From Sphingomonas sp. (GTDB lineage: Bacteria; Pseudomonadota; Alphaproteobacteria; Sphingomonadales; Sphingomonadaceae): a stretch of 64,000 nt of DNA. This document shows, piece by piece, positions 49,312 to 64,000 of the stretch (its first letter is position 1; the number at the start of each line of letters is the position of its first letter). The notes beneath the pieces were generated by a model, which made no database searches, was not told the DNA's origin, and worked only from the letters and a program-made list of their open reading frames with translations. The DNA is taken from NCBI RefSeq assembly GCF_017304635.1, contig NZ_JAFKMA010000001.1:372001-436000 (forward strand). The letters are read 5' to 3'. A program made the position numbers and the translations under genes.

Positions 49312-49475
49312 CTGGCCTCCTTGCTGAAAGTCGGACGCAGAATCCGACACATGACTCCTAGCCAAGACCGCTAAATATGTCAAGCGATGCTAAGTTTATG
49401 CTTGACGTTCTTAGCAATGCTCGGCGATATTAGCGGAACCGGCAAAGGAGCCGGCAACGCCCTGGAGGCATATTG
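49312..49475. promoter_or_regulatory. Divergent promoter/operator region between XRE repressor and Ubl operon
   Basis: Plus-strand promoter candidate: TTGACG (49402-49407), 18-bp spacer, GATATT (49426-49431). Minus-strand candidate: TTGACA (49383-49378), 17-bp spacer, TAGGAG. Two nested inverted repeats cover both: CCGCTAAATAT (49368-49378) with ATATTAGCGG (49427-49436), and TGCTAAG (49388-49394) with CTTAGCA (49410-49416). All share a GCTAA core, as expected of repressor half-sites. GGAGG at 49464-49468 serves the first Ubl gene. Confidence 0.6.
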
Positions 49476-50588
49476 ATGTCCGATATTGCAGAGGCCGCGC
49501 TCCGCCGCGGAGAAGACCGTTACCGCATCGAGGTCGCCGACGAATCGCTGGCCTTTCGTTCCATTTCCATCGATGATTTGACGCCGACCGGCGAGCAGCT
49601 TGCCCGCGCGGCAGGCTTCAAGCCGCCAGACGGCGCCGTGGTGCTCCAGATGCTCGCGGACGGTGCGCTCGAGTCGATCCGTCCGGAGGAGGTGGTCGAG
49701 CTTCGCCATCAGGACGGGCGCTTCGTCATCGTCGCAAGCGATCGTCTCTATTTCCTGACGATCGACGGTCAGCGATACGACTGGCCGTGCCGCATCATCA
49801 GTGGCGGCCTGCTCCGCAAGCTTGGCGCTGTGCCGCGCGAGAAGGCGATCTATCTCGAGCGGATCGATCATCCTGATCGGCCGATCGGCGACCATGACTT
49901 GGTCGATCTCGATCGCGATGGCATCGAGTCGTTCATCACGCGCAAGGCGATCTGGAAGCTCAACGTGCATGGCGTCGTGATCGACGTGCCCACGCCGACG
50001 ATCGCAGTTCGCGCGGCGATGGAGCAGGCCGGGTTCGATACCACCAAACCCTGGTACATCTTCTTCAAGGTCGTTGGGGAAGTGAAGCGGGAGGTCGATC
50101 TTGACACTATCCTCGACCTCGAGACGCCGGGGATCGAGAAGCTCAGGCTAACGCCCAAGAATGTCGATAACGGCGAGGCGCCCCCGGCGCCTCGCCGCGA
50201 CTTTGCGCTGCTCGATATCGACACCGCTTATCTCGATCGCCTCGCGCTCAAGTGGGAAACGATCGTCGAAGGCGGTCGCCGCTGGCTACTGATCCGGAAC
50301 TTTGCGGTGCCTGGCGGCTATACGGTGGCGCACACCATGCTCGCCCTCGAAATCCCGTCTGGCTATCCAGGCGCCGCGATCTACGGCTTCTATGCCTATC
50401 CGCCGCTGGCGCTCTCTTCGAACCGGGAGATCGCGAGCACACAGCTCCGTGGCATCCTGCTCGGCGTAGAGTTCCACGGCTGGTCGCGATATCGTGGGCC
50501 GGCCGCACCTTGGAACCCCGTGACGGACAATGTTATTACCCAGCTCGGGCTCGTCGAGGCGGCGTTGGTGAAGGAGGTCGGGGAATGA
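49476..50588 (+). CDS. Triple ubiquitin-like (Multi_ubiq) - E2-like fusion protein
   Basis: A 370-residue protein. Three tandem beta-grasp units: Ubl1 about 15-86 (T-P-T-G-E-Q-L-A-R-A-A-G), Ubl2 about 90-156 (L-T-I-D-G-Q-R-Y), Ubl3 about 158-228 (K-L-N-V-H-G-V-V-I-D-V-P-T-P-T). The latter two end with the family's V-D-L/L-D-L-x-x-x-G-I-E-x-F/L. Residues about 240-368 match the prokaryotic E2 family E: W-E-T-I-V-E-G-G-R-R-W-L-L-I, V-P-G-G-Y, I-P-S-G-Y-P-G-A, W-S-R-Y-R-G-P-A-A-P-W-N-P. There is no cysteine in the E2 part; the only one is C105 in Ubl2. ATG at 49476 after GGAGG. The stop overlaps the next gene (ATGA). Multi_ubiq and E2 are usually separate genes, so this fusion is notable. Confidence 0.82.
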   Translation: MSDIAEAALRRGEDRYRIEVADESLAFRSISIDDLTPTGEQLARAAGFKPPDGAVVLQMLADGALESIRPEEVVELRHQDGRFVIVASDRLYFLTIDGQRYDWPCRIISGGLLRKLGAVPREKAIYLERIDHPDRPIGDHDLVDLDRDGIESFITRKAIWKLNVHGVVIDVPTPTIAVRAAMEQAGFDTTKPWYIFFKVVGEVKREVDLDTILDLETPGIEKLRLTPKNVDNGEAPPAPRRDFALLDIDTAYLDRLALKWETIVEGGRRWLLIRNFAVPGGYTVAHTMLALEIPSGYPGAAIYGFYAYPPLALSSNREIASTQLRGILLGVEFHGWSRYRGPAAPWNPVTDNVITQLGLVEAALVKEVGE

Positions 50589-51988
50589 TGCCCGCCTCGA
50601 CCCTTGCCTTCACCGGTGTCGTGCACCGTGAACTGAAATCCCACCTTTTTCCCGGCGACGGCCGCGAGGCCGCCGCCATCCTGCTCTGCGCCTGCACGCC
50701 CGGGCCGCGCTTGAGGCTACTGGTGCGGGAGGTCATCCCGGTGCCCCATGCAGCGTGCGGGCGGCGCGAGCGCGATGCGATCAGCTGGCCCGGCTATTAT
50801 ATCGAACAGGCGATCGACCGCGGCGAGGCGGAGGGGCTCGCGATCATCCTCCTGCACTCTCATCCTGGCGGCTTGTTCGCCTTTTCGGATGTCGACGATC
50901 AAAGCGACCGCGCCACTATCCCGTGCCTGTTCCAAGCTTATGGCGACAGGCATGGTTCGGCGGTCATGACGCCGAACGGCGCCGTCCGGGCGCGGCTCTA
51001 CGAACCGGATATGATGATCCGCCCGATTGACCTCGTCACCAGCGCGGGGGACGATATCCATTTCTGGTGGTTGGATGACAAAGCGCTGATTGCCCCTGCC
51101 GTCCGGCCCGTCGCCTTTACCGGCGGGATGTCGGCTGAGTTGCGAAGGTTGCACGCGATTTTCGTCGGCGTGTCGGGCACTGGTTCGATCCAGGCCGAGC
51201 AAGCAGCACGTCTCGGCTTCGGCGCGGTGACACTGATCGATTTCGACAAGATCGAACGCAAGAACCTCAACCGTATCCTGAACACTTCAATCGCCGATGC
51301 CGAAGCGGGGCGCCTCAAGGTCGACGCGTTCGCTGGGGCCATCACGGCTTATCGAGGCGCAGACGTCGCCAAGCCGATCACCGCGTCGATCAACACGCGC
51401 GAAGCCGTGCTCGCGGCCAGCCAGGGCGACATTTTATTCTGTTGCGTCGATACGCTGGAAGCCCGGCATATCGCTGATCTCATAGCCGCTGCATTCCTCA
51501 TGCCGCTGTTCGATGTCGGCGTTGTCATTCCCGTCCGGCGGGCTGGAGATGGATTCGCAATCGCTGATGCAGTTGGGCGTATCGACTACGTCCAGCCCGG
51601 TGGCGCCACGCTCGGTGATCGCAAAGTCTACACCCCTGAATCCTTGCGCGCCGAATATCTCCGGCGGGTCGCGCCCGATGCTCATGCACAGGAGCTTGAA
51701 GCCGGCTATATCAAGGGCGCAATCGAAGAGGCACCGGCAGTGATCACCCTAAATATGCGGGCCGCTTCAGCCTGCATGAACGAGTTCATCCTGCGCGCCT
51801 ATCCGTTCCGGCTCGAACCGAACCGTGGTTATGCGCGCACGCGGTTCAGCCTGGCCGCGTGCGACGAAGAGCATTTCGCCGAGGACGATTTCGAAGTTGG
51901 AGCGAATCCGATTCTCGGCCGGGGCGCCCTCGAACCTCTCTTGGGGCTGCCTGCCCTTGCAGCGCTGAAGTCGGCGGGGGCTCGATGA
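50585..51988 (+). CDS. JAB/JAMM peptidase - E1-like (ThiF) adenylyltransferase fusion
   Basis: A 467-residue protein. N-terminal JAB domain with a complete JAMM zinc motif: E28 (candidate), H91-S-H93, S101 and D104 with the canonical spacing. C-terminal ThiF/E1 domain: nucleotide loop G-V-S-G-T-G-S (195-201), D219, N-L-N-R (227-230), K245 and C-V-D-T (287-290). By family knowledge, E1 activates the Ubl C-terminus and JAB removes or matures it. Overlaps of 4 bp with both neighbours indicate obligate co-expression with the Ubl-E2 and DUF6527 genes. Confidence 0.87.
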   Translation: MMPASTLAFTGVVHRELKSHLFPGDGREAAAILLCACTPGPRLRLLVREVIPVPHAACGRRERDAISWPGYYIEQAIDRGEAEGLAIILLHSHPGGLFAFSDVDDQSDRATIPCLFQAYGDRHGSAVMTPNGAVRARLYEPDMMIRPIDLVTSAGDDIHFWWLDDKALIAPAVRPVAFTGGMSAELRRLHAIFVGVSGTGSIQAEQAARLGFGAVTLIDFDKIERKNLNRILNTSIADAEAGRLKVDAFAGAITAYRGADVAKPITASINTREAVLAASQGDILFCCVDTLEARHIADLIAAAFLMPLFDVGVVIPVRRAGDGFAIADAVGRIDYVQPGGATLGDRKVYTPESLRAEYLRRVAPDAHAQELEAGYIKGAIEEAPAVITLNMRAASACMNEFILRAYPFRLEPNRGYARTRFSLAACDEEHFAEDDFEVGANPILGRGALEPLLGLPALAALKSAGAR

Positions 51989-52512: not shown

Positions 52513-53463
52513 TCAGATGACGATGGGATAGATCCAGGAGCGCCCGACGCCTTTCGTGGTTTCACGGTGATAGCTACTGCAGTTAGGAAAGATGATGCTT
52601 GCAGCATCGCCCACCAGATTGCGCAGATAGAAGAGGCCAAATCCTACTGCCTGGGGTTTGGTAGCGAGCGGCGCCAGATACAAGTTTGTGAGCTTGCGCT
52701 GCCCATTTAGGCCGCCAAGCGCATCGAGCAGCGACCCGGCTACGACATAGGGGTCGTTGGCGCTCGTGTAGAAATCATCGCCAGCTGCTCTCGGCCGCTC
52801 AGACCAGATGCGGTCCAGCCGGAGTAGGCTCTCATGGTACATGTCGGCGCTGAGTGAGGGAAAACTGTGAAGCTGGACGGGCCGTGCGCTCTCCTTCACC
52901 CGCAGAACATGGGAGATGAGGTGATGGTCATAACCGACACCCAAGATGAGTATGTCGCCCGACATGTCATTGTCATGCGCACCGATATAGCCCGAAACCG
53001 ACCGCACTTGGACATCCTCGCCCATTGAAAAGCGCGTATCCGCTTTTCGCGCATATTGTTCGGGTTCAGTATAGAGGAGATCATATTCCCGAACTCCCTT
53101 TGAGCGAAGCCAGGCCATTAGGTAGAGGATTTGCGGTCTCATGAGGCCGGTGATGTCAACACATAGTCGGCGATCCGTCTCAGGATCATAGCCGCACGCC
53201 TCCATCCCCTGGATGACGACCTCTGCTTCGGTCCCGGCATCAAGCAGATGGGCATTGGACAGATGGGAAATCTCATCTGGCCTGTAGCCATATTCGGGAA
53301 TCACCCACCAGGCATTCCGGCGGGCGGTAAGCTTTTCGAAGACCTTCTGGACTCGCGCGCTCTCATTGTAGGCCGAGATGACGAGATCCCAGTCGCGCTG
53401 CGCGCGCTCGAGCGGCAGCTTCGCGTCAAGCAGTGCCGCGACCATATCTGCGATGGCTGTCAT
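52513..53463 (-). CDS. Unrecognised Rossmann-like protein, last gene of the four-gene operon
   Basis: A 316-residue cytoplasmic protein, no named family recognised. Alternating strand-helix pattern: D-L-V-I-S-A-Y-N-E-S near 26-35, L-C-V-D-I-T-G-L-M-R-P near 98-108, G-D-I-L-I-L-G-V-G-Y-D-H near 168-179, then a C-terminal K-L-T-N-L-Y-L-A-P-L-A-T-K-P-Q-A-V-G-F-G near 257-276. The D-I-T-G and A-T-K-P-Q-A-x-G segments vaguely recall CARF/SAVED-type nucleotide sensors, but this is only a resemblance. Start overlaps the AAA gene stop (ATGA), so it is part of the same unit. Confidence 0.6.
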   Translation of the reverse strand: MTAIADMVAALLDAKLPLERAQRDWDLVISAYNESARVQKVFEKLTARRNAWWVIPEYGYRPDEISHLSNAHLLDAGTEAEVVIQGMEACGYDPETDRRLCVDITGLMRPQILYLMAWLRSKGVREYDLLYTEPEQYARKADTRFSMGEDVQVRSVSGYIGAHDNDMSGDILILGVGYDHHLISHVLRVKESARPVQLHSFPSLSADMYHESLLRLDRIWSERPRAAGDDFYTSANDPYVVAGSLLDALGGLNGQRKLTNLYLAPLATKPQAVGFGLFYLRNLVGDAASIIFPNCSSYHRETTKGVGRSWIYPIVI

Positions 53464-55475
53464 TGGTCGAACAATTCTCCGGCCAGCCGGGTATCGGCGC
53501 TGCCCAACGGCGCGATCATCGCCTCCACGCGCTGCTTAAAGAGGGCGGGCAGCCGGTCCCTGAGATCAGGATCGAAGATGGCATTTGCGAATTCGGTGCC
53601 GAGTTCCATGCTGCCGCGCCGATGCTCGGAAATCTCCCATTTTGGCGCCAGCATCGGGCCAAGTTGATATTTCAGATCGAGATTGCGATTGTTCTTATTT
53701 CTTCGCGGCTCCTTGAGGCGGATCAGATAAGACCAGTTCTCCGAAATCATGAGGACTTTGCGGCTGTTCGGCGTCAGGGAGTCGCTGGCCACACTGAAGG
53801 TACAAAGATCACATTCCGAAGGCACGTTACTAAACCGTACCGTCCGGAATAGAATTGCCAAGCTTTCCACAGCCTCCCTTACGAGCATCCCATCGCTGTC
53901 GGGCTGAGCATCCTCCCAAAACCATGCGGCGCCGTCGCGGACACCCTCGGTTTGAGATCGAATTGAGATTATGCCGCCCGCGAAAGGCTTCTCGCCGGCG
54001 AACTGGGAACGGCGGTAGATATATTTGAGATTGGTGAGGAGGTTACGAGGAATGCCTTGGGACAGATCGACCAATGTGTTGAAGCCGCTATAAGGCACGC
54101 GTTTCCTGAAGTCGCGATACAGCTGTGCCAGAATATCGGAGTCGAAATGCGCGATGAGCTGTGAGAGTTCGCGGGCATCCTCTCGCCGACCGTTGAGCAA
54201 AGCGCGAGCCTGCGCAGCGGCGCGTTGCGCCAACTCGACGGCTTCATCTGAGGTGCGTGGTCTGCGCTTACGGAAATAGAAGACGGCGGCTTTCTCGAGA
54301 TAGAAATTCTCGGGGATCTCCATCTCTGCGAGAATATCGTCTGCCACTTCGGGTGTGATGCCGCGTATTCTAAGAAGGTCGCTTTTGAGCCGCTGGAGAT
54401 AGGGGCGCAGCCGGCTCGGATCGGATCCTGAGACGAGATCCTCTGTAGCGGCCCGCCAATAGTCGCGGCTATCCAACTGCGCAAACTGTCGCGCAATGAC
54501 TGCATCGCCTTCGGCGCCTGGACTTAAGCTCTCGAGTCGCTTCGCAACGAGCTTCGTCACAAGATGCTCATAATCCTTGCGTCTTTCGCGCAGTAGATTG
54601 TCCAGCTCTACCCGTTCGTACTCCGCATCGCGCTTTATGGGCTCGCCCGAGCCCAGCGTATCATAGGTCTTGATGCCGTAGAGCCGCGCGCCGAGCTTGA
54701 TCGTCGCATTGCCCCAACGATAGCGGATCAATGAATTTAGGTAGCGTTGCTGACCGGCGGAAAAATTCTCTAACTCGTCGATCAGATAGACGATCAGGAT
54801 CCCGCCCAATCCCGGCACCAGCTGGGTCATTAGCGCCGGAATGCCGAACACCAGGCGGCCCGTCGAGAAGGTGATGCGTACATCGTCCAGCGTCCCAGAT
54901 AGCGACGCGTTATTCACCGCATAATCGATACCCTTTCTCGCGCGCGTGAGATAGGCGAGCATAGTCTCGATCGAATCGAACTCGCCGGACATGTCGAGGT
55001 CGAACAATTCTCCAACCTGGCTTGCGAAGGCCTGCTCATCGAAACCTTCAAGGCCTTCATCGACATAATCCCGCAGGATACCAATCAGGCTCGTCGCCAG
55101 CCAAAGCTCAAAATAGGTGCCGTAGATCGGTGTCCAGAATTCATCAGTGTGACCTTTGCCGGCGAACTTGTCGATATTGAGCCCGTCGGCTCGTACATAG
55201 ACACCCATGAAGCCATCTTCTTCGATGGCTCGGCGAAGATCGCCGCCACGACGCATGGCTTGGACCGGCGCCGAGATATAGCGCATGAGGTGTGTTTTTC
55301 CGCTACCCTTTCCGCCCAGCAGAAGCATCGGCATCCGCAATGTCGGTTTGAGAATGCCCAGGAGGCCTCCTGGGGAATCTGCGAGATCGACCCATAGCTC
55401 GGCGATCTCTTTATCGGAGAAATCCGAAGCCTTGTTCAGGTCGAACGGATTATCGTGTGTGCGGCGACCTTGCAT
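53460..55475 (-). CDS. ORC/CDC6-like AAA-family ATPase
   Basis: A 671-residue ATPase. N-terminal P-loop G-G-K-G-S-G-K-T-H-L (54-63) and Walker B Y-L-I-D-E-L-E-N (D233, E234), with sensor-like R-Y-R-W-G-N further on. The central and C-terminal parts are helical and Arg rich, with a probable winged-helix region (F-N-T-L-V-D-L-S-Q-G-I-P-R-N-L-L). The layout fits the ORC-CDC6-like ATPases predicted in conflict systems. Third gene of the MTase-PRTase-ATPase operon: 6 bp after the PRTase gene and 4-bp overlap with the next. Confidence 0.75.
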   Translation of the reverse strand: MQGRRTHDNPFDLNKASDFSDKEIAELWVDLADSPGGLLGILKPTLRMPMLLLGGKGSGKTHLMRYISAPVQAMRRGGDLRRAIEEDGFMGVYVRADGLNIDKFAGKGHTDEFWTPIYGTYFELWLATSLIGILRDYVDEGLEGFDEQAFASQVGELFDLDMSGEFDSIETMLAYLTRARKGIDYAVNNASLSGTLDDVRITFSTGRLVFGIPALMTQLVPGLGGILIVYLIDELENFSAGQQRYLNSLIRYRWGNATIKLGARLYGIKTYDTLGSGEPIKRDAEYERVELDNLLRERRKDYEHLVTKLVAKRLESLSPGAEGDAVIARQFAQLDSRDYWRAATEDLVSGSDPSRLRPYLQRLKSDLLRIRGITPEVADDILAEMEIPENFYLEKAAVFYFRKRRPRTSDEAVELAQRAAAQARALLNGRREDARELSQLIAHFDSDILAQLYRDFRKRVPYSGFNTLVDLSQGIPRNLLTNLKYIYRRSQFAGEKPFAGGIISIRSQTEGVRDGAAWFWEDAQPDSDGMLVREAVESLAILFRTVRFSNVPSECDLCTFSVASDSLTPNSRKVLMISENWSYLIRLKEPRRNKNNRNLDLKYQLGPMLAPKWEISEHRRGSMELGTEFANAIFDPDLRDRLPALFKQRVEAMIAPLGSADTRLAGELFDQ

Positions 55476-55481
55476 GGATCC

Positions 55482-56495
55482 TCAAAGCTTGGCGTAACGG
55501 CGAAATGCTGGGAACCAGGACACGCCTGCACCATCCTCACGCCAGATCACGGGTAGCGTATTGTCGGGTGTGTTGTGATGGAAGCCGAGAAGTAGCTGCG
55601 CATCGTTAAAGCCGCAGGGATGCTTCGGCCAGAGCAGCGCGCCGTACGTGCGAACCATCATCCGAAGCTGATCACCGTTGATATGCGGCGGCGCGGCATG
55701 AAGATAGCGAGACGTCGGAGACAGGCACCGATAGGTTTCGTCAAGCTCGAAAACCGCAGCACAGCGCTCGCCGAATACTGACTCTGTCCGCACTCGATCG
55801 AGCCCATCTTGAAGCGCGAACATCGCGAGGTAGTAGAGCTTTGCGTCGGGTTTTAGCTCAAGAAGATTGGCGAGCGCATTCTTGGAATAGGAAATGGCAG
55901 TTCTCGCGGACCCGCAGACATCATCGATGAACACGTACCGGTCGATATCGGGATTGCCCAGCGTAGGCACGGTCGTACCGTCCGGAAGATAGGACCTCGC
56001 GAACATGGCCGTCGCGTCCATAAACTGCGCTTTGCTCAGCCCATTCTCCTGGCGAAAGTAATAAAGAAGATGGACGCCGCTCTCGGAGGGGTTGCCAACT
56101 CCCAGAAACCGGGTGCGCTGGAGAGCCAGCTCAACCGCCGGCACGATCAATGCAGCATCGCGCGTTCCCCCAAGGCTTGCACGAACCTCCTGGATTAAGG
56201 GCGCCATGAACAGGTCGCGAAAAACAGATTGTAGCAGCACACGGGTTTCGATGCTCCCAACGTACAGAAACTGCGAGAGCAGGAAGAGCGCATGAAGCCG
56301 CTCAGTATCGACGTCAATGCCGCTGCGACCGTCGAAATTGGCCAGCCAATGTTCGACATCCGGCCAGCGATTGCGTCCTTCCCACGCCCGCTCGTTAAGG
56401 ATCGTGATACGTCGCCGTAACATCTCCCACGTGTCCTCGGGCGTCACCTCTGCCCCGTCGGGGAGGATGCCATTGAGCTCCTCCAGAATGCTCAT
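55482..56495 (-). CDS. PRTase-like protein (PRTase-CE type)
   Basis: A 337-residue protein. The phosphoribosyltransferase-type loop Y-V-F-I-D-D-V-C-G-S-A-R-T-A (187-200) has the two acidic residues and the small-residue turn that bind PRPP in the fold, and R-x-L-G-V-G-N-P-S-E-S-G (about 129-140) precedes it. I relate it to the PRTase-CE group of predicted conflict-system effectors; whether it is a transferase, hydrolase or nuclease-like effector is unknown. ATGA overlap with the upstream methyltransferase gene. Confidence 0.7.
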   Translation of the reverse strand: MSILEELNGILPDGAEVTPEDTWEMLRRRITILNERAWEGRNRWPDVEHWLANFDGRSGIDVDTERLHALFLLSQFLYVGSIETRVLLQSVFRDLFMAPLIQEVRASLGGTRDAALIVPAVELALQRTRFLGVGNPSESGVHLLYYFRQENGLSKAQFMDATAMFARSYLPDGTTVPTLGNPDIDRYVFIDDVCGSARTAISYSKNALANLLELKPDAKLYYLAMFALQDGLDRVRTESVFGERCAAVFELDETYRCLSPTSRYLHAAPPHINGDQLRMMVRTYGALLWPKHPCGFNDAQLLLGFHHNTPDNTLPVIWREDGAGVSWFPAFRRYAKL

Positions 56496-57943
56496 CGTGT
56501 CTGGCTAGCCTTCCTGAGCACGAGCACCCATTCGCTGACAATTACACCAGCCGTGGCAGCTCTTCGGGTGATGAGACCACGTGAACGAATGTCGTCGATG
56601 ACGACGAGTTTGGTTTCCATGCCCATCTCTTCGAGTATGAATCGAAGATATTCGGATGAAGGGAATCGCTGCCCGCAGACCGTATTGTCACCGATCACGA
56701 GAACCATGTAGCCGCCCTGCTTGAGAACGCGCACGCTTTCGCAGAGCGCGGAGCGCATCTCGACCAGATAGTTTGCGCAAATGGCGGCGCGAAGTGCGTT
56801 CTTGTTGGAGATCACTTCCAGCAGTTGTTCGGCTTCGGGGATGCCCGTCTGGGGTCGGGTAAGGACGTCAGCCTTCGGGAAATGTTCGCGCCCGATCGTT
56901 CGGCGTTCAAGCGCGGTTAGGCCTCGACTACCAGCAAGCCCGAGCCAACCGAGGCTGAGACTTGTCGCGCGAACATATTTCTGGGCACCGGCATAAGGCG
57001 GTGACGTCAGAACTAGGCCAACCGATCCGTCAGCAAGAGGATTTCCGTCTGCGCCCTTCAAGGATCTGGCGTCGTCGCCTGCACAATCGATGCGTACTGG
57101 CACGCCGGCTGGGAGCAGTCGGTCCAGCTCACGAAACCGTTGCCTATTTACTTCCAGCCCTTGAATGAACGTCTCGAGGACATTCCGCGACCGCACCTCA
57201 CCTTTGTCGTGGCGACGAACCGGGACTGAGAAGCGCGGGTCTGCGTGGCTCACTTTGCGCGCTGTGGCTGAGAAAGTGGTCTGGAGCAGGGGCCGCAGAT
57301 GCGCATCGGCAACTTGGTCGATTGCTGCGCGCAAGCGTACCAGCGCACGTATGGTTGCCTCGTCGTACCAGTGGTCAAGGTTCACGACATCGGGCTTGGA
57401 ACGCGCTCTGATCCGAGAAAAGGCATGCCTAATTGTCGACGCGGCTGCTGCTATTGCTTCGTCATCAAGACGGGCAACCTTTGTGGTCGTGATCAGCTTG
57501 GCGAGCGGGTTTACGTCGGCATGGATTGCCCGCCGACCGGAGAGCACGGCTTCCAGCGGCACGGTTCCCGCGCCAGCGAACGGATCAAGAACCACATCGT
57601 CCCGTGACGCCAGTAGTTTTGATGCTAGGAAAAAATGCGCTATCTGCGGCAGTAGTTTTGCCGGGTACGAATGAAGGTAGTGGGTGCCCCGTTCACCGAC
57701 CTTAATCCAGGGTACGAGCTCTCGGAAAGATACCGGGATGGATCGTCGATCACCGTTAAAGCGGCGGAGTAACTGCGCTACTGCCGGCCCGGTGTCGACC
57801 GGATAGGCCGAATCTTTTTCTGTCCGTAAAGGGGCGGTAGCCGCTTCAGAAGACAGTTCGCCCAGCCCGCTACAAATATATTCGCTGCCGCCGAGCGCCG
57901 TTGCGTCCACACCCATCCCCGATTTTATGGCCCCCATCGACAT
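56492..57943 (-). CDS. DNA methyltransferase (amino-MTase with TSPPY motif)
   Basis: A 483-residue protein. SAM-binding motif D-P-F-A-G-A-G (120-126) precedes the catalytic T-S-P-P-Y (313-317), an order compatible with N4-cytosine or N6-adenine DNA methylases. R-K-V-S-H-A-D-P-R-F-S-V-P (about 229-241) is another conserved block of this type. No restriction endonuclease is adjacent, so it may instead mark self for the downstream PRTase-ATPase-Rossmann proteins. First gene of the operon. The ATG at 57943 has two further in-frame Met codons close by. Lower G+C than the backbone. Confidence 0.85.
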   Translation of the reverse strand: MSMGAIKSGMGVDATALGGSEYICSGLGELSSEAATAPLRTEKDSAYPVDTGPAVAQLLRRFNGDRRSIPVSFRELVPWIKVGERGTHYLHSYPAKLLPQIAHFFLASKLLASRDDVVLDPFAGAGTVPLEAVLSGRRAIHADVNPLAKLITTTKVARLDDEAIAAAASTIRHAFSRIRARSKPDVVNLDHWYDEATIRALVRLRAAIDQVADAHLRPLLQTTFSATARKVSHADPRFSVPVRRHDKGEVRSRNVLETFIQGLEVNRQRFRELDRLLPAGVPVRIDCAGDDARSLKGADGNPLADGSVGLVLTSPPYAGAQKYVRATSLSLGWLGLAGSRGLTALERRTIGREHFPKADVLTRPQTGIPEAEQLLEVISNKNALRAAICANYLVEMRSALCESVRVLKQGGYMVLVIGDNTVCGQRFPSSEYLRFILEEMGMETKLVVIDDIRSRGLITRRAATAGVIVSEWVLVLRKASQTR

Positions 57944-58434: not shown

Positions 58435-59757
58435 TTGCTAACTGAACATTCTATTAAACAACTGAAATCAAAAGGGAAAAACTACAAGGTTACAGATCGC
58501 GATGGACTCTATGTCCATGTCAGCAGGGCAGGGACGATGTCGTACAGGTTCGACTATCGCCTTAACGGTCGCCGGGAGACGCTCACCCTCGGCGTTCATG
58601 GGCCTTCCGGTCTCTCGCTTGCGCTCGCGCGCGAAAAGCTGGTCGATGCGAGACGCATGGTGGCCGCGGGGCGATCACCGGCCCAGGAAAAACAACGCGA
58701 GAAACGCCGGCTCAAAGGAGCGAAGACTTTCGGTGAGCATGCGGAGCGGTGGTTCGGGAAGTCCGGCATGGCTGACAGCACCCGCGCGATGCGTCGATCC
58801 ATATACAACCGTGAGCTTCAGCCAGTCTGGGAAGGGCGCCATCTCGATGAAATCACACCCGACGACCTCCGCGCCCATTGTGCGAAGATCGTCGAGCGAG
58901 GTGCGCCGGCGACAGCCATTCATGTCCGCGACATCCTCAAACAGATCTATGCGCACGCCCGCTTGAATGGTGAGAAGGTAGCTAATCCGGCCGACGAAGT
59001 TGCGCCAACATCCATCGCCACGTTCGTGCCAAGGGACCGGTCACTTTCACCAGCAGAGATCTGCGTGATGCTGCGTGCGCTCGAGCTTGTGGCAACGATG
59101 CCAACCATAAAATTGGCACTGAAGCTCTATCTCTTGACCATGGTGCGAAAGAGCGAATTGCAGGATGCCAAATGGGACGAGATCGATTTCGAGAATGCCG
59201 TCTGGACCATCCCGAAAGAGCGGATGAAGGGTTCAAAGGCGCACAATGTGTATCTGTCGAGGCAAAGCATCGACATCTTGGTCGCGCTCAAAACCTGCTC
59301 GGGAATATCGCCTTACCTGCTGCCCAACCGAAATGAGCCGAGTGCGCCCATGTCCCGTGCGATTTTCAACCGCGTGACCCACGCGGTAGTGGAACGCGCC
59401 AAGCGAGATAAGCTTCAATTGGAACCCTTCACGGTTCACGATCTGCGAAGGACGGCGTCGACGCTGCTCAACGAACTTGGGTTTAATGGCGATTGGGTCG
59501 AGAAATGCCTCGCGCACGAGGATCGGCGATCTTCCCGCAGCATCTACAACAAGGCGGAGTATGAGCATCAACGTCGTCATATGATGCAGGAATGGGCTGA
59601 CATTGTGGATGCTTGGGCGGCAGGCCAGAAGCGTGTACCTGTTCTCGCGCCGCCGACACCAACGCTTGATCTCGATCCTGCTATCTCACTCAAGGTCTAT
59701 AGTGCGGCTGCGATCGCCCAAGCGCCGCCGTTTCGGGCGCGTCGGAGAAGAGCATAA
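58435..59757 (+). CDS. Tyrosine recombinase/integrase (P4 type, DUF4102 N-terminus)
   Basis: A 440-residue integrase. N-terminal DUF4102 arm-binding domain (L-T-E-H-S-I-K-Q-L..D-G-L-Y-V-H-V-S), central SAM-like core-binding domain, C-terminal catalytic domain with R238 (T-M-V-R-K-S-E-L), H335-x-x-R338 (V-H-D-L-R-R-T), H361 and Y371. All catalytic residues are present, so it is probably active. The final 45 residues are a Pro/Ala-rich, basic extension. TTG start at 58435 because the family's first strand begins here. It indicates a mobile island, but its partner att sites were not found. Confidence 0.9.
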   Translation: MLTEHSIKQLKSKGKNYKVTDRDGLYVHVSRAGTMSYRFDYRLNGRRETLTLGVHGPSGLSLALAREKLVDARRMVAAGRSPAQEKQREKRRLKGAKTFGEHAERWFGKSGMADSTRAMRRSIYNRELQPVWEGRHLDEITPDDLRAHCAKIVERGAPATAIHVRDILKQIYAHARLNGEKVANPADEVAPTSIATFVPRDRSLSPAEICVMLRALELVATMPTIKLALKLYLLTMVRKSELQDAKWDEIDFENAVWTIPKERMKGSKAHNVYLSRQSIDILVALKTCSGISPYLLPNRNEPSAPMSRAIFNRVTHAVVERAKRDKLQLEPFTVHDLRRTASTLLNELGFNGDWVEKCLAHEDRRSSRSIYNKAEYEHQRRHMMQEWADIVDAWAAGQKRVPVLAPPTPTLDLDPAISLKVYSAAAIAQAPPFRARRRRA

Positions 59758-59848: not shown

Positions 59849-60685
59849 CTACATGAAGTTTGCCTGGAAGCTCGTCGCCATCAGCGAGACATGGGCTTCC
59901 AGTGGCGGCCGCAGCTCGAACGCGCGCGGCTCCCGCGCGAAACTCCACAATCGCACCAACCGCCAGTCGTGACGGTGTGTCTCGGCGACCGCGAGCTCGT
60001 TGCGCGTGATGTGAAACGGCGTCCGCTCCCAGCCATTGGTTGTCTTCACCTCGATCAGCCGATCACTGCCGTCGGGTTCGAAGCTGCGGATGTCATAGCC
60101 GGCACCGTCGCCATCGACATGCGACACCCAACGGATGCGCTCGGCCAGATCGGACCGGCCGGCGGCCAGCAGGCTGGCGCGTTCATGGGCAAGGACGCGC
60201 TCCTCGCCGGCGCGCCCAAGCGTCCGATTGCGTGCATCGCGCTCGGCGACATCGTACTTACGAGATATAGCGGTCATCTGCTCGAGTTCGTCGGGCGGAG
60301 GTGCGTTGCTATGTGTCGGCGGCGGTCCAATCCATAACATTGCTTCCTCCCGAAGCGCCGCCGCTGACGGGGTCATTGCCGCCCGTGCGGCCGGTGCGAG
60401 CCAATCGGGATGTCGATCGAGCCAACGCACTACCGCGTCGACAAGCGAGGCCTGAAAATTGAAGGCCGGCTTGTAGCCCGGGAGCCAGTCCTCCCCGAGG
60501 CCCTTGAGCACCGCGCTGATGTTCTGATGCTTGTATTCGATCGAACCCCGTGGGCGGCCGATTATCGCCTGCAGGAGACGGTTGTGTGTGGCCTTGCTAT
60601 AGGAGCGTCCAACGATATCGTCAGCGAGCATCGCGAAATAGTCTGCGACGATCGCGTCGTTCTGCTCGTCGGTCCAGTCAGTCAT
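59849..60685 (-). CDS. DUF3883 domain protein, PD-(D/E)XK nuclease-like
   Basis: A 278-residue protein. The C-terminal half has the DUF3883 core: E161 in G-R-A-G-E-E, D198 in G-Y-D-I-R-S-F, and E212-V-K214 in L-I-E-V-K-T-T, the order expected for a PD-(D/E)XK nuclease fold. The N-terminal 100 residues are helical (possible target or DNA binding). It may act in defence; it lies alone between the integrase and the AbiE pair on the same strand as AbiE. Confidence 0.8.
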   Translation of the reverse strand: MTDWTDEQNDAIVADYFAMLADDIVGRSYSKATHNRLLQAIIGRPRGSIEYKHQNISAVLKGLGEDWLPGYKPAFNFQASLVDAVVRWLDRHPDWLAPAARAAMTPSAAALREEAMLWIGPPPTHSNAPPPDELEQMTAISRKYDVAERDARNRTLGRAGEERVLAHERASLLAAGRSDLAERIRWVSHVDGDGAGYDIRSFEPDGSDRLIEVKTTNGWERTPFHITRNELAVAETHRHDWRLVRLWSFAREPRAFELRPPLEAHVSLMATSFQANFM

Positions 60686-60721
60686 TGCCGCGCCTGGTAT
60701 GCTCAGCGAAATACGCTGAAT

Positions 60722-61606
60722 TCAGGTAAGCGAGCATCTTTTTGATAATGCGCGGGCCGCCTCGGCACGCGGGCCAAGGAACGCGGCGAGCGTCGCGCAC
60801 ACATCCACGAGGCGCCCTGGATCCGCCCCGAGATCACGCTTGAACGCTTCCCATTGCTGGACCTTGGCGGGATCCTCGCCGAACTCGGGGGTGAGGCCAT
60901 CGGGAAGTTGACCCGGAATCTCCGTGTTGCGGCGCTCGAACGTCGCTTTGATAGAGCGCACCAACCGATCGTCGTCGAACCGGAAACTGGTGGCCAGCAA
61001 CCAGATGTCGTAGAAATCCTTCATGCGCGAGTTGGCGCGGCCAAGCAGGACCATTGCCTGAAACTTCTCGGCGATCACCGTCTCGCGGGCATAGGCTCGC
61101 AGCCTCGGCACGGGCTGGTCGAGTAGGACCGGATAATCGAGGAGTTCCGCGCCGGGTTCCAGCGCGTCGCCAAAACCGACGTCGATCGCAACCGGCACAC
61201 GCGCTCCGCCGACATCGGCTGTGGCGCGCAGGCGAACACCGCCATAATCGAGCGCCTCGCGGATACGATCGACGCGTAGGTCGTCGGCTTTAAACGCGAT
61301 CCCGTCTGCCACATCGATCGATAGAATATCGCGAAACGTCGCCAACATCGCGTCGGGGTCCGGATCGCCAAACGCGAGCAGGTCAAGGTCCCGCGTGGGA
61401 CGTGCAGGATCATCGAACCAGGTGGTGAGAAGCATCGCGCCCTTGAGCACGAACCGCTCGGCATGGGCGGAGATGCTGAGCCGGTACAGGAGCCGCTCCA
61501 GCGCGAAGCGAACGAGGATCAGATCGAACGGCTGACCAGCCGCACGAGCCTGGTTGAGCAGCTTCGCACGGACGGAGGCGCCCAGGTTGGGACGCTTCTC
61601 AACCAT
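60722..61606 (-). CDS. AbiEii-type nucleotidyltransferase toxin
   Basis: A 294-residue protein with the AbiEii signature: K-G-A-M-L-L (55-60) and T-R-D-L-D-L-L-A (71-78, metal-binding D73 and D75) of a minimal nucleotidyltransferase. Type IV toxins of this family modify tRNA or other RNA and cause growth arrest on phage infection. The start lies within the AbiEi gene (8-bp overlap), giving coupled antitoxin-toxin synthesis. Confidence 0.9.
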   Translation of the reverse strand: MVEKRPNLGASVRAKLLNQARAAGQPFDLILVRFALERLLYRLSISAHAERFVLKGAMLLTTWFDDPARPTRDLDLLAFGDPDPDAMLATFRDILSIDVADGIAFKADDLRVDRIREALDYGGVRLRATADVGGARVPVAIDVGFGDALEPGAELLDYPVLLDQPVPRLRAYARETVIAEKFQAMVLLGRANSRMKDFYDIWLLATSFRFDDDRLVRSIKATFERRNTEIPGQLPDGLTPEFGEDPAKVQQWEAFKRDLGADPGRLVDVCATLAAFLGPRAEAARALSKRCSLT

Positions 61607-62237
61607 CGATGGTCAGCACCTCGAGATAAGGGGCCATCAGCGACCAAGCGCCTCGCGAACGCGCGCATTCTGCAATCGCTGCGGGTGTTGTCCTGCGGAG
61701 TCGGAGCGCCTCACGCAGCGCCTCGACCGCGACGTTGAGCCCAACCGACTTACGATGGCGAAAGCAATCGACCAGCGTCCGGGTAATCGTGAACATGGGG
61801 ACACTGACATTTTCGATCATGTGAGTTTCAGAGTCTGACCGTAGCAGCTTGTCAGACATCCGCACGATCCTGAGACGCGGCCCATGCTCGGCAGGAGGCC
61901 AGTCCTTGAGCCCGATCGCCATCCAGACCTTACGCGGCATCTGATCCGTTAGTCCGTGATAGGCGAGGGCGGAAGTCAGGCAGACCACGCCTTTCGGTAC
62001 GCGCTTTGCAGCCTCGGCCAGATCGTGGTTGCTATCGATCTCCGCGTCGGCAAGCTGATAGAGTCCGCGCGAGAGACGCTGCACCGTGCCTTCGGAGAGC
62101 ATTCGGGATATGATGGTGGCGGCTATTCCCTCCGCCGCAAGCTCGCCTGTGCGCATCATGCCATGCGTCGCGAGCAGGTCCCGCGCTCTCTCTGCCTGCG
62201 GCGAGCGGCTGTTATGTTTCCTCGGAGAGTTCTTCAT
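61599..62237 (-). CDS. AbiEi-type antitoxin
   Basis: A 212-residue protein: N-terminal winged helix (A-R-D-L-L-A-T-H-G-M-M-R-T-G-E-L-A) for operator binding and a C-terminal domain (about 80-200) as in AbiEi, which neutralises AbiEii through repression rather than binding alone. The ATG at 62237 has a TATAAT-like -10 and a palindrome close upstream; longer in-frame frames upstream lack features and are rejected. Confidence 0.87.
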   Translation of the reverse strand: MKNSPRKHNSRSPQAERARDLLATHGMMRTGELAAEGIAATIISRMLSEGTVQRLSRGLYQLADAEIDSNHDLAEAAKRVPKGVVCLTSALAYHGLTDQMPRKVWMAIGLKDWPPAEHGPRLRIVRMSDKLLRSDSETHMIENVSVPMFTITRTLVDCFRHRKSVGLNVAVEALREALRLRRTTPAAIAECARSRGAWSLMAPYLEVLTIDG

Positions 62238-62239
62238 GG

Positions 62240-62278
62240 ATACCGAGGTATTATAACATTGCGCCAGATCGATCAAGC
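62240..62278 (-). promoter_or_regulatory. AbiE promoter and candidate operator
   Basis: On the minus strand TATAAT lies at 62255-62250 with a TTGAT-like -35 near 62278-62272. ATACC-GA-GGTAT (62240-62251) is a perfect palindrome directly after it, fitting autoregulation by AbiEi. Confidence 0.55.
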
Positions 62279-62330
62279 TCGGCGAAATTGAGGCTGGCGA
62301 TCCGACCCGCAGGCTGGGTTGAAGAAGATG

Positions 62331-62365
62331 GAGCGCGCCGATCCGCCGCTCAGATCGGCGCGCTC
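62331..62365. terminator. 13-bp stem-loop in the 301-bp gene-free gap before AbiEi
   Basis: GAGCGCGCCGATC (62331-62343) pairs with GATCGGCGCGCTC (62353-62365). The rest of 62238-62538 has no credible gene. It may end the minus-strand ParB transcript. Confidence 0.6.
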
Positions 62366-62538
62366 CTGGAATTATCACGCCGCAAACGCGGTGTGCGGCC
62401 AGCCATATGACGGCTGACCTAGCGGGCTCCATGCGGGTTCGCCGCCATTCCCGCCACCGCCCTCGATCCGCCCCACGCGGCGGCTTCTCCGACGGTCCCG
62501 GCGCTTATGGGTCCCGGTCCCCCTTAACCCAGCCGTCC

Positions 62539-63429
62539 TCAGGCGGATGTCGACTGATCGAGTGAGGCCGCCTGAACAATCGCACGGAAATTCCCCAGGA
62601 ACTCGGGATGCCGCCGCTCGAGAAAGCCCTCAATCTCGGGCTTGGAAAGCAGCCGTTCGAGAAAGCCCGATGCGACGACCAGCACCAGCATGTCGTCGCC
62701 GTAGGAGGCTTCGAGTTCCTTATAGTCTTCGCTCACCGACGCCATCTCTCGCTCGAGCCGCGCCATCTGCTCAGCTGAGAGGCCGGTCGCTTTCTTCAGT
62801 TCGTCGGGCTTGTGCAGATCGGCCGCCTTCGAGGTTGCGAGCAAAGCCTTGGCATAGCTCACGGTGTAGTTATTCGCCGAGACCATGAGTTCGGCCACCT
62901 CGAGCTGGCGAATGGGCTTCATCTTGCGAAGCTTCTGGAAGGCGTGATGTCCGACTGGCTTGTCCTTGAGCAACTCGGCCACATCCGGACTGATGCCCGC
63001 CAGAAGATGCCGCCGTTGACGGATGACCTTCACATCAACATTGAGCGCGCGGGCCAGCTTTTCCTCGGAAACGCCTCGATCGAGCGCGCGCACGATCATG
63101 TAGTGCTCCTGGATCGTCGCCAGCCGGTTCACCCGCTTATTGTAGGTGAACGACTCATCGTCGTCGGCGACAACGCAAGGCGCGTCGGCAGCGTCCAGAA
63201 ACCGCAGGGCATCGAGCCGCATATGTCCGTCGAGCAGTAGGTAGCTGCCATTTTTCTGACGAGCGATCGAAAGTGGCTCTATCAATCCTACCTCCTGCAC
63301 CGAGGCGGCGATCCGGCGGTATTTGACTGTGTCGCGTACACCCGCCGGCAAAGCCTTAGTCGGCAACAGGTCGGCGATCGGCAGGTTCAGGATCTTGCGC
63401 TCGAACGCAATCTTGACCAGATCCGCCAT
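62539..63429 (-). CDS. ParB/RepB-like protein with RepB C-terminal domain
   Basis: A 296-residue protein. ParB N-domain pattern near 40-75 (V-Q-E-V-G-L-I-E-P-L-S-I-A and L-L-L-D-G-H-M-R-L-D-A-L), then a helical KorB/RepB-like region and a RepB-type C-terminus. Such proteins bind DNA as part of plasmid or mobile-element partition. The ATG at 63429 is chosen over an upstream codon overlapping the next gene. A second similar gene lies 7 bp upstream on the same strand. Confidence 0.8.
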   Translation of the reverse strand: MADLVKIAFERKILNLPIADLLPTKALPAGVRDTVKYRRIAASVQEVGLIEPLSIARQKNGSYLLLDGHMRLDALRFLDAADAPCVVADDDESFTYNKRVNRLATIQEHYMIVRALDRGVSEEKLARALNVDVKVIRQRRHLLAGISPDVAELLKDKPVGHHAFQKLRKMKPIRQLEVAELMVSANNYTVSYAKALLATSKAADLHKPDELKKATGLSAEQMARLEREMASVSEDYKELEASYGDDMLVLVVASGFLERLLSKPEIEGFLERRHPEFLGNFRAIVQAASLDQSTSA

Positions 63430-63436
63430 GCTAAAC

Positions 63437-64000
63437 CTATGCCGGCCCGATGCGCTCGGCGAGCGCACGTGGCAATGTGCTGAGGCCCTCCGCCCGGAGC
63501 AGCGCCACAAAATGATCGTCGGCTAACAGACGGCGCAATGCGTTGGCCACGAACAGCAGCCTGCTCCGTGCGAGAGAAGCGCGCTTGATCAACAGCTTTT
63601 GCCGTTCTGTCTCGCGCTGATAGGCGCGGATCAGTCCTTCCGAGGTGACCGGTTTCTGGGCACGGCCAGGCCGCGCTCCCTGCTTATGAAGCTGCTTCCC
63701 GCTGGTGTTGCGCTGGTCGATGATCTTCCGGATCGCGAGCACCTGATTGCCCGGGATGGTCTTTTCCTCATAGGCTTGGGCCAGCGCCTGCTGGACTTCG
63801 CCATCCTTGGCCCGCGCGATTTCCATCGCGATCGTGTGCGGGATCACGCCGCGCTCGACCGCGGCAATCAGCTTTTCCTCACCATTCTCGAGCAGCAGGC
63901 AGATGGCGCTGACATATTCGACTGAGAAATCGACCTTGGCGGCGATCTCGGAATAGGAATAGCCGCGCGCACTAAGCGCGCCGATGGCGTGGACCAGTTC
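63437..64000 (-). CDS. ParB/RepB-like DNA-binding protein, 5' end beyond window
   Basis: At least 188 residues; the frame stays open to the window edge. It contains S-Y-S-E-I-A-A-K-V-D-F-S-V-E-Y-V-S-A-I (HTH-like), then I-P-H-T-I-A-M-E-I-A and a C-terminal RepB-like part (R-A-S-L-A-R-S-R-L-L-F-V-A-N-A-L). It resembles the C-terminal region of plasmid RepB proteins and is paired with the downstream ParB-like gene. True start lies outside. Confidence 0.72.
   Translation of the reverse strand, partial: ELVHAIGALSARGYSYSEIAAKVDFSVEYVSAICLLLENGEEKLIAAVERGVIPHTIAMEIARAKDGEVQQALAQAYEEKTIPGNQVLAIRKIIDQRNTSGKQLHKQGARPGRAQKPVTSEGLIRAYQRETERQKLLIKRASLARSRLLFVANALRRLLADDHFVALLRAEGLSTLPRALAERIGPA

What the first reader, a model, noticed from the sequence alone, without database searches (positions are those of the whole stretch)
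52513..57943. Four-gene operon: DNA MTase, PRTase-like, ORC/CDC6-like AAA ATPase and an unknown Rossmann-like protein
Seen: four minus-strand genes with ATGA overlaps (MTase/PRTase, ATPase/last gene) and one 6-bp gap, no restriction endonuclease, in an island beside guaA and an integrase. Family knowledge: PRTase-CE-type and ORC-CDC6-like proteins have been predicted computationally in conflict systems. I know no characterised system with this exact four-part make-up. Inference: the MTase marks self DNA, the ATPase senses non-self or drives assembly, the Rossmann protein senses a signal, and the PRTase or last protein is the effector.
Basis: partly seen in the sequence, partly recalled or inferred. 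Interest (0 to 1): 0.85.

Follow-up and report, generated by a model that had tools for sequence, protein, structure and literature searches.

The report
Four-gene mobile defence-like operon
Four neighbouring bacterial genes form a travelling unit that looks like an anti-virus defence system: one protein probably marks the cell's own DNA, two probably sense an intruder and one probably attacks the nucleotide supply, and about a quarter of its relatives carry a thymidine-pathway enzyme beside it, a clue to how it may work.

Summary
They are one conserved unit: of 74 loci found with the PRTase alone, 67 carry all four in the same order and strand, in eight or more phyla; catalytic residues are nearly invariant and the genes co-diverge. 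ATPase plus CARF6 form a core; MTase and effector vary in relatives. The PRTase family also partners retron III-A reverse transcriptases, so PRTase is the likeliest effector and ATPase-CARF6 the likeliest sensor. Unexpectedly, 21 of 80 loci have a thymidylate-pathway gene beside the operon: ThyX, the unrelated ThyA, or dUTPase. In 11 of 11 genomes tested the operon-side ThyX is the only ThyX and comes on top of a ThyA. This hints at nucleotide, perhaps thymidylate, stress as mode of action, but ThyX also accompanies other effectors, and the window's own operon lacks it. The families are already in Pfam or PADLOC. The searches made found no account of the whole or of the thymidylate link, but likely source papers were not held. 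Function is untested.

The parts
56492..57943 (-). DNA methyltransferase: motif I DPFAGAGT, then about 190 residues, then TSPPY (motif IV); N4-cytosine or N6-adenine type (motif reading recalled)
   Evidence: Pfam N6_N4_Mtase 6.5e-9; PADLOC MTase_II 4.9e-39; motif I residues in 74-75 of 75 ungapped rows and S-P-P-Y in 76 of 76 (window included)
55482..56495 (-). PRTase-CE phosphoribosyltransferase-type protein, proposed effector; PRPP-type motif FIDDVCGS and family motif HNTPDN
   Evidence: PF24390 2.2e-54; PADLOC PRTase_III-A 1.8e-24; D191 and D192 in 78 of 78 ungapped rows
53460..55475 (-). ORC-CDC6-like AAA+ ATPase, proposed sensor/switch
   Evidence: PF24389 1.5e-123; Walker A lysine in 68 of 76 rows (Arg in 8), D233, E234 and R264 in 76 of 76
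52513..53463 (-). CARF6-family protein, proposed ligand sensor
   Evidence: PADLOC PDLC01914 5.2e-85; 46 of 46 alignment members, window included, match the same model; D103, T105, G106 in 75 of 75 rows
58435..59757 (+). Tyrosine integrase, divergent from the operon, 492 bp upstream; marks a mobile island (context, not part of the mechanism)
   Evidence: Phage_integrase 1.3e-24, Arm-DNA-bind_3 4.1e-18; distance

Best explanation
It is a self-contained, horizontally moving defence (anti-invader) operon. Shown: four genes found together and co-diverging, conserved catalytic motifs, a shared ATPase-CARF6 core with exchangeable partners, and a recurrent thymidylate-pathway gene beside it in part of the relatives. 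Inferred: (1) the MTase marks the cell's own DNA; (2) the ORC-like ATPase assembles on incoming or unmarked DNA, and CARF6 binds a nucleotide-derived ligand that helps set the switch; (3) when triggered, the core releases the PRTase, which damages the nucleotide pool (PRPP or nucleotides) and stops phage replication, probably at a cost to the cell; (4) where present, the spare thymidylate synthase or dUTPase keeps host dTTP up and dUTP down, limiting self-damage. Steps 1-3 rest on family knowledge and gene neighbourhood; step 4 on neighbourhood alone.
For: Unit: 67 of 74 loci have the four genes in order on one strand; median ORF spacings -4, 2 and -4 bp in those 67; pairwise distance correlations 0.56-0.81 among the four genes in 72 loci, 0 of 999 permutations as high. 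Effector: the same PRTase family sits beside a reverse transcriptase in 9 of the 18 above-cut-off PF24390 loci, with PRTase_III-A and RT_III-A labels on L042; retron III-A1 with PRTase/WH effector genes is described in PMC12548924 (passages); a DprA-PRTase pair protects against T7 and lambda in PMC9122126 (passages). Modularity: a different MTase (L036, L040), HAD-type and PfkB enzymes (L045, L049, L050), HD-like, metallophosphoesterase or kinase-like partners (HD-like by eye). Nucleotide link: ThyX, ThyA or dUTPase within 1.5 kb in 21 of 80 loci; in the 11 ThyX-bearing genomes searched, ThyX is extra to a ThyA. Context: AbiE, ubiquitin-like E1/E2/JAB and PDC-S36 genes nearby.
Against: No phenotype data. 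ThyX also accompanies ATPase-CARF6 loci with other partners (L187, L190, L192, L197) and a two-gene pair without detected ATPase or CARF6 (L188, L189, L191), so it is not tied to the PRTase. In 59 of 80 loci, the window's included, no such gene was found within 1.5 kb, though some contigs end sooner. One locus (L085) has no MTase hit, and the four HAD-type loci L045, L049-L051 have no window-type MTase hit in the stretch fetched (their fifth relative L177 has only a weak one, 5e-4), so self-marking may not be universal. Walker A lysine is arginine in 8 of 76 rows. No Cas10 palm or SMODS match in the host genome, so the CARF6 ligand is unknown.
Confidence: 0.6

Rival explanations
1. The PRTase (or the HAD, PfkB, HD-like or phosphoesterase protein in other loci) makes or trims a nucleotide signal that CARF6 reads; the ATPase is the acting part, for example by blocking replication on foreign DNA.
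For: The window's CARF6 protein has no other domain match, and the host has no Cas10 palm or SMODS match to supply a known ligand; partners in the variable slot are mostly nucleotide or sugar-phosphate enzymes.
Against: In 9 of 18 family loci the PRTase is beside a reverse transcriptase and my CARF6 and ATPase profiles found nothing in the stretch fetched, which fits an effector better than a signal maker for CARF6.
Confidence: 0.17
2. The core senses disturbed thymidylate metabolism itself (dUMP, dUTP or uracil in DNA); the extra ThyX, ThyA or dUTPase lowers the background and prevents false alarms.
For: A thymidylate synthase or dUTPase accompanies the core with several different partners (dUTPase also beside L040); ThyX and ThyA belong to different Pfam families with one function, and dUTPase acts one step upstream (pathway recalled).
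Against: No such gene was found in 59 of 80 loci; no ligand is known; a two-gene pair without detected ORC ATPase or CARF6 also has ThyX.
Confidence: 0.13
3. It is mainly an addiction or maintenance module of plasmids and islands, with MTase loss or curing causing toxicity, and anti-phage activity incidental.
For: Found on plasmids, beside integrases in some loci and in three viral contigs.
Against: An ORC-like ATPase and a CARF-family protein are more than addiction needs (inference); the neighbourhood of the window holds other defence-type genes.
Confidence: 0.07
4. An ordinary orphan methyltransferase next to unrelated genes.
For: Distant relatives of the MTase occur elsewhere: 9 of 385 class genomes besides the host at E<=1e-20, none of those 9 stretches with a PRTase, ATPase or CARF6 hit.
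Against: The window-type MTase is part of the unit in 67 of 74 loci and co-diverges with the other genes.
Confidence: 0.03

Closest known systems
CARF6 family of the CARF superfamily (PADLOC CARF6 models; recalled source Makarova et al. 2020, not held)
   Same: Last gene matches PDLC01914 at 5.2e-85; 46 of 46 alignment members match.
   Different: I could not read what operon context the source paper gives CARF6, so overlap with a published description is possible.
Pfam PF24389 ORC-CDC6-like and PF24390 PRTase-CE (neighbouring accessions, so probably described together; recalled as computational predictions, source not read)
   Same: Window ATPase and PRTase match at 1.5e-123 and 2.2e-54.
   Different: These are models of single proteins; what their source says of the MTase, CARF6 or thymidylate partners was not seen.
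Retron type III-A (PRTase/WH + reverse transcriptase; PMC12548924, passages)
   Same: Same PRTase family; D192, G295 and P310 are invariant in all 17 rows aligned, retron-type rows included.
   Different: No reverse transcriptase match in the window operon or six neighbours; the partners are ATPase, CARF6 and MTase; several retron rows lack the first aspartate of the DD pair and have a C-terminal extension.
BREX (BrxC, ORC/Cdc6-clade ATPase, with BrxX methyltransferase; PMC12839542, passages)
   Same: Methyltransferase plus ORC/Cdc6-type ATPase.
   Different: No PglZ or Brx match shown for the four genes; PRTase and CARF6 instead.
DprA-PRTase defence pair (PMC9122126, passages)
   Same: PRTase proposed there as effector activated by a DNA-binding sensor.
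   Different: Sensor is DprA, not an ORC ATPase with CARF6; whether the PRTases are close kin was not tested here.

Membership tests
CARF6 family | Sequence match to curated CARF6 profiles | tested here: met
   PDLC01914 5.2e-85 and six further CARF6 models; 46 of 46 alignment members
CARF6 family | CARF (Rossmann) fold | not testable with these tools
   Structure prediction switched off; PDB profile search found no relative; no member of 46 matched a CARF model of Pfam. Indirect: another CARF6 (L049) hits CARF1_HEPN at 1.7e-5 and Csx1 at 0.0056
Type III CRISPR / CBASS signalling | A Cas10 or SMODS nucleotide cyclase in the same genome | tested here: not met
   PF22335 and PF18144: 0 matches in the 99.9%-complete host genome; both models rang in control genomes. 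Other cyclase models not tried
Retron type III-A | PRTase of the III-A family | tested here: met
   PADLOC PRTase_III-A 1.8e-24
Retron type III-A | Adjacent reverse transcriptase | tested here: not met
   Pfam on the four genes and six neighbours of the window: no RVT_1; RT present in 9 of 9 retron-like loci
BREX | PglZ with BrxC-type ATPase and BrxX methyltransferase | tested here: not met
   No PglZ or Brx match shown for the four proteins in Pfam, PADLOC or NCBIfam; only the best 25 of 52 PADLOC rows of the MTase were shown
Restriction-modification | Cognate restriction endonuclease | tested here: not met
   None of the matches shown for the four genes is a nuclease family; a nuclease elsewhere in the genome was not sought
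Four-gene MTase-PRTase-ATPase-CARF6 operon (this system) | Same four genes, order and strand in unrelated genomes | tested here: met
   67 of 74 loci
Anti-phage defence system | Protects against phage | not tested
   No experiment; only neighbourhood and family evidence

The most novel reading that the evidence does not exclude
A modular ATPase-CARF6 immune core whose interchangeable effectors attack the nucleotide (thymidylate) supply, with a co-encoded spare thymidylate synthase or dUTPase acting as a metabolic antidote: immunity by controlled thymineless stress with a built-in bypass, found in many phyla and re-paired with the core several times.
Probability: 0.3. Interest if true: 0.85.

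Novelty: new variant of a known kind. Interest (0 to 1): 0.64.

Why it matters
PRTase effectors occur in retrons and other defence systems, but PMC9122126 (2022) says that their mode of action in retrons is unknown (passage). If a second thymidylate synthase of either family, or a dUTPase, keeps being recruited beside an ATPase-CARF6 core, that gives a directly testable clue to what such systems do to the cell: feed or starve thymidine and watch activity. It would also show CARF-family sensing in a genome without a detected Cas10, and give a compact, portable system with a DNA mark, a switch and a swappable effector.

Tried and rejected
Type III CRISPR or CBASS accessory role: rejected for this host, no Cas10 palm2 or SMODS match (two models only). 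Ordinary orphan MTase: rejected by the census; related MTases without the other genes do exist. Antidote tied only to the PRTase: weakened, because ThyX also sits with ATPase-CARF6 loci that have other partners, and with a two-gene pair. ThyA near L078 (3.1 kb) and L075 (2.4 kb) was not counted; in the L078 genome the only ThyA hits are those near the operon. A ThyX of the host serving this operon: not supported; the host's ThyX is on another contig beside a different gene pair. In 101 genomes of the genus ThyX is in 2 and a PRTase match in 5, of which 2 near full length; only the host has both, if the two calls drew the same 101. A PRTase, CARF6 or ATPase relation of the unknown ThyX neighbours: profile comparison gave no support, but no positive control was run. 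Island ends: a direct-repeat search of 40000-64000 gave no convincing att pair. Literature: 'PRTase-CE' in no paper of the library; 'CARF6' in none of the 20 listed of 99; nothing on the four-gene set or the thymidylate link among the listed results (20 of 21; 2 of 2; 20 of 34; 15 of 43); nothing on a PRTase effector mechanism among those (12 of 12; 20 of 42; 12 of 1,512), judged from titles and abstract starts and the passages named elsewhere. Papers recalled as Makarova 2020, Burroughs 2015, Burroughs 2020 and a retron census are not held, so prior description cannot be excluded. One search was wasted: the term seems to have matched an author's name.
Full report
OBSERVATION. The four minus-strand ORFs are as described. 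Matches: MTase to N6_N4_Mtase (6.5e-9), PRTase to PF24390 PRTase-CE (2.2e-54), ATPase to PF24389 ORC-CDC6-like (1.5e-123). The last gene has no Pfam match but matches the PADLOC CARF6 model PDLC01914 at 5.2e-85. The operon is AT-rich for its surroundings, 57.4% against 64.7% GC. It lies between a GMP synthase gene, guaA (45343-46911), and, upstream on the other strand, a tyrosine integrase (58435-59757). AbiEi/AbiEii, a PDC-S36 NOV-domain gene and ubiquitin-like E1/E2/JAB genes are nearby. The ends of the island were not found.

ONE CONSERVED UNIT. I searched the species genomes (84,980 by the tool's description) with an alignment of the PRTase only (two peptide patterns, 171 stretches, 71 confirmed loci) and the viral contigs (3 loci), then scored all four families in each locus. 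Of these 74 loci, 67 hold MTase, PRTase, ATPase and CARF6 hits in that order on one strand (L076 and L122 with an end gene cut by the contig end); 3 lose CARF6 at a contig end (L055, L071, L120), 2 have the ATPase in two frames (L082, L112), one has no MTase hit (L085) and one is a remnant (L124). With the window and five plasmid loci the set is 80. ORF spacings in the 67 have medians of -4, 2 and -4 bp, and 65, 66 and 67 of 67 are 30 bp or less (the ORF caller takes the longest start, which exaggerates overlaps). In the 72-locus tree hosts are Pseudomonadota, Bacteroidota, Actinomycetota and single records of Nitrospirota, Poribacteria, Thermodesulfobacteriota, Cloacimonadota and Heimdallarchaeota, with 8 rows in no group (several are metagenome bins and could be misbinned). 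Distances between the four genes correlate at 0.56-0.81 across these 72 loci, with 0 of 999 permutations as high; the MTase is the loosest partner (0.56-0.59). Phylum labels need 8 changes on the operon tree where 7 is the least possible, so transfer between phyla is limited in this sample.

ACTIVE SITES. In alignments that include the window: MTase motif I in all 75 ungapped rows but for one residue in one row, S-P-P-Y in 76 of 76; PRTase D191 and D192 in 78 of 78 ungapped rows; ATPase D233, E234 and R264 in 76 of 76, Walker A lysine in 68 of 76 (arginine in 8); CARF6 D103, T105, G106 in 75 of 75. Stricter text patterns gave lower counts: 62 of 79 for Walker A, 54 of 79 for Walker B, 55 of 73 for the second CARF6 motif. 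The roles of these residues are recalled from family knowledge. In the wider PRTase family only the second aspartate (D192) is invariant in the 17 rows aligned; several retron-type rows lack the first.

MODULES. The PRTase-CE family occurs above cut-off in 18 of 398 genomes of the phylum, the host included. Those 18 are: the window; one PRTase-ATPase-CARF6 locus with a different MTase downstream (L040; the plasmid locus L036 is alike); four loci with the ATPase and a ~640-residue HAD-type protein (L045, L049, L050, L051; a SIS match is only sub-threshold, in L045 and L051), with CARF6 by PADLOC in the three tested and a PfkB-type kinase in three of the four; nine with an adjacent reverse transcriptase (9 of 9), labelled retron III-A by PADLOC for the one tested (L042); two with a window-like stretch inside a ~1110-residue MTase, of which L037 has an HmaA-like helicase, a NADAR protein and a DUF1156 MTase and L038 has the same gene sizes but was not scanned; and one longer PRTase protein (L039). 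A fifth HAD-type locus is L177, which has a weak MTase hit (5e-4). PF24389 itself is over cut-off in 8 of 385 class genomes, mostly by about 50 N-terminal positions; the two long matches besides the host, L177 and L178, both have a CARF6 hit next door, and the other five were not examined. The ATPase and CARF6 therefore look like a core, and the PRTase is shared with retrons.

THYMIDYLATE LINK. Clustering the flanks showed ThyX as the commonest neighbour, and Pfam confirmed examples of ThyX (PF02511, 2.6e-56), ThyA (PF00303, 1.1e-124 to 2.5e-129, all three loci) and dUTPase (PF00692, L069, L071, L112). Within 1.5 kb of the operon: ThyX in 15 of 80 loci (10 upstream on the same strand, overlapping or within 30 bp; 4 downstream and 1 upstream on the other strand), ThyA in 3, dUTPase in 4 (one also has ThyX), 21 of 80 in all. 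The other 59 include loci whose contig ends close by: of the 72 tree loci 64 had at least 1 kb before and 300 bp after the operon. In 39 searched host genomes (one more was not held; the plasmid strains were not searched), all 11 with operon-side ThyX have one ThyX, the operon-side one by coordinates that I compared by hand, plus a separate ThyA; of the other 28, three have ThyX and these three lack ThyA. Two of the three ThyA loci were searched and each genome has two ThyA copies. ThyX keeps its RHRx7S motif in 14 of 14 tested. On the operon tree ThyX needs 5 changes and any thymidylate synthase 7 (gain and loss not told apart); L067 and L031 share 90% identical ThyX although their operons lie in different clades, so ThyX has been re-paired with the operon. 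A dUTPase also lies beside the PRTase of L040.

THYX ELSEWHERE. A search with the host's ThyX found 240 plasmid records, among them plasmids that carry the operon. I opened 12 further records, chosen from the better alphaproteobacterial hits: one has the window-type operon with a broken ATPase (L198), four have ATPase-CARF6 loci with another partner (L187 and L192 with a cytosine-type MTase and an HD-like protein; L190 with a metallophosphoesterase by annotation; L197 with a window-like MTase and a kinase-like protein), three have a two-gene pair of a GHKL-like and a ~745-residue protein (L188, L189, L191), and four show none of these (L193-L196). HD-like and GHKL-like are my reading of the sequences: a PDB search gave nothing for the HD-like or the phosphoesterase protein, while kinase-like has weak PDB support (7e-6).

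RESULTS AGAINST. The window's operon has no thymidylate gene beside it. Its host has one ThyA and one ThyX, the ThyX on another contig next to a different gene pair. In 101 genomes of the genus ThyX is in 2 and a near-full-length PRTase in 2, with only the host having both, which proves nothing. Because ThyX follows the core and even another pair, it need not answer the PRTase. No fold could be predicted, and no solved structure relates to CARF6 or PRTase by sequence.

MECHANISM. I favour a defence operon: MTase marks self; ORC-like ATPase and CARF6 sense and gate; PRTase is the effector acting on nucleotides; thymidylate enzymes in relatives buffer the damage. The first three roles follow from what such families do elsewhere (BREX pairs a methyltransferase with an ORC/Cdc6-type ATPase, PMC12839542, passages; retron III-A1 has PRTase/WH effector genes, PMC12548924, passages; a DprA-PRTase pair is protective, PMC9122126, passages). 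The CARF6 ligand is unknown: no Cas10 palm2 or SMODS match in the host.

NOVELTY. Each core protein family is already in Pfam or PADLOC. The names suggest earlier computational description, and the likely papers were not held. I found no description of the four-gene set or of the thymidylate association in the searches made, of which I saw only the listed results. In PMC13092281 (passages) a thymidylate synthase is among domains of validated E. coli defence systems and PRTase is named in a legend of validated systems; whether those relate to this operon was not tested.

Noticed in passing
window 49473-51988 (+): Ubiquitin-like genes: multiubiquitin/E2 protein and JAB-ThiF (E1) protein. A related E1-like cluster lies within 5 kb of the same operon in L090 and L099, and L034's record annotates a multiubiquitin and a ThiF protein nearby.
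   Followed up: partly
L179:6394-10947 (host contig C1): The host's ThyX is divergent from two large unknown genes (370 and 798 aa); the larger is remotely similar (1e-8) to the ~745-aa protein that sits with ThyX and a GHKL-like protein on plasmids L189 and L191. A possible second ThyX-linked system.
   Followed up: partly
L045, L049, L050, L051, L177: PRTase-ATPase loci (CARF6 confirmed by PADLOC in L045, L049, L051) with a ~640-aa HAD-type protein and often a PfkB-type kinase, and no window-type MTase hit in L045, L049-L051.
   Followed up: partly
L178:7104-10707: A CARF6-like protein downstream of an 857-aa protein whose start looks like a protein kinase fused to the ATPase (kinase by eye); compare the separate kinase-like gene in L197.
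   Followed up: no
L037 and L038: PRTase-CE in L037 beside an HmaA-like helicase, a NADAR protein and a ~1110-aa DUF1156 methyltransferase; L038 has the same gene sizes. Another MTase-linked use of this PRTase.
   Followed up: no
window 59849-62432 (-): PDC-S36 NOV-domain protein and an AbiEi/AbiEii pair, and a RepB-like partition gene at 62539-63510, suggesting plasmid ancestry of part of the region.
   Followed up: no
L033, L198: Operon copies on rhizobial plasmids with the ATPase ORF broken into pieces, so degraded copies exist.
   Followed up: no
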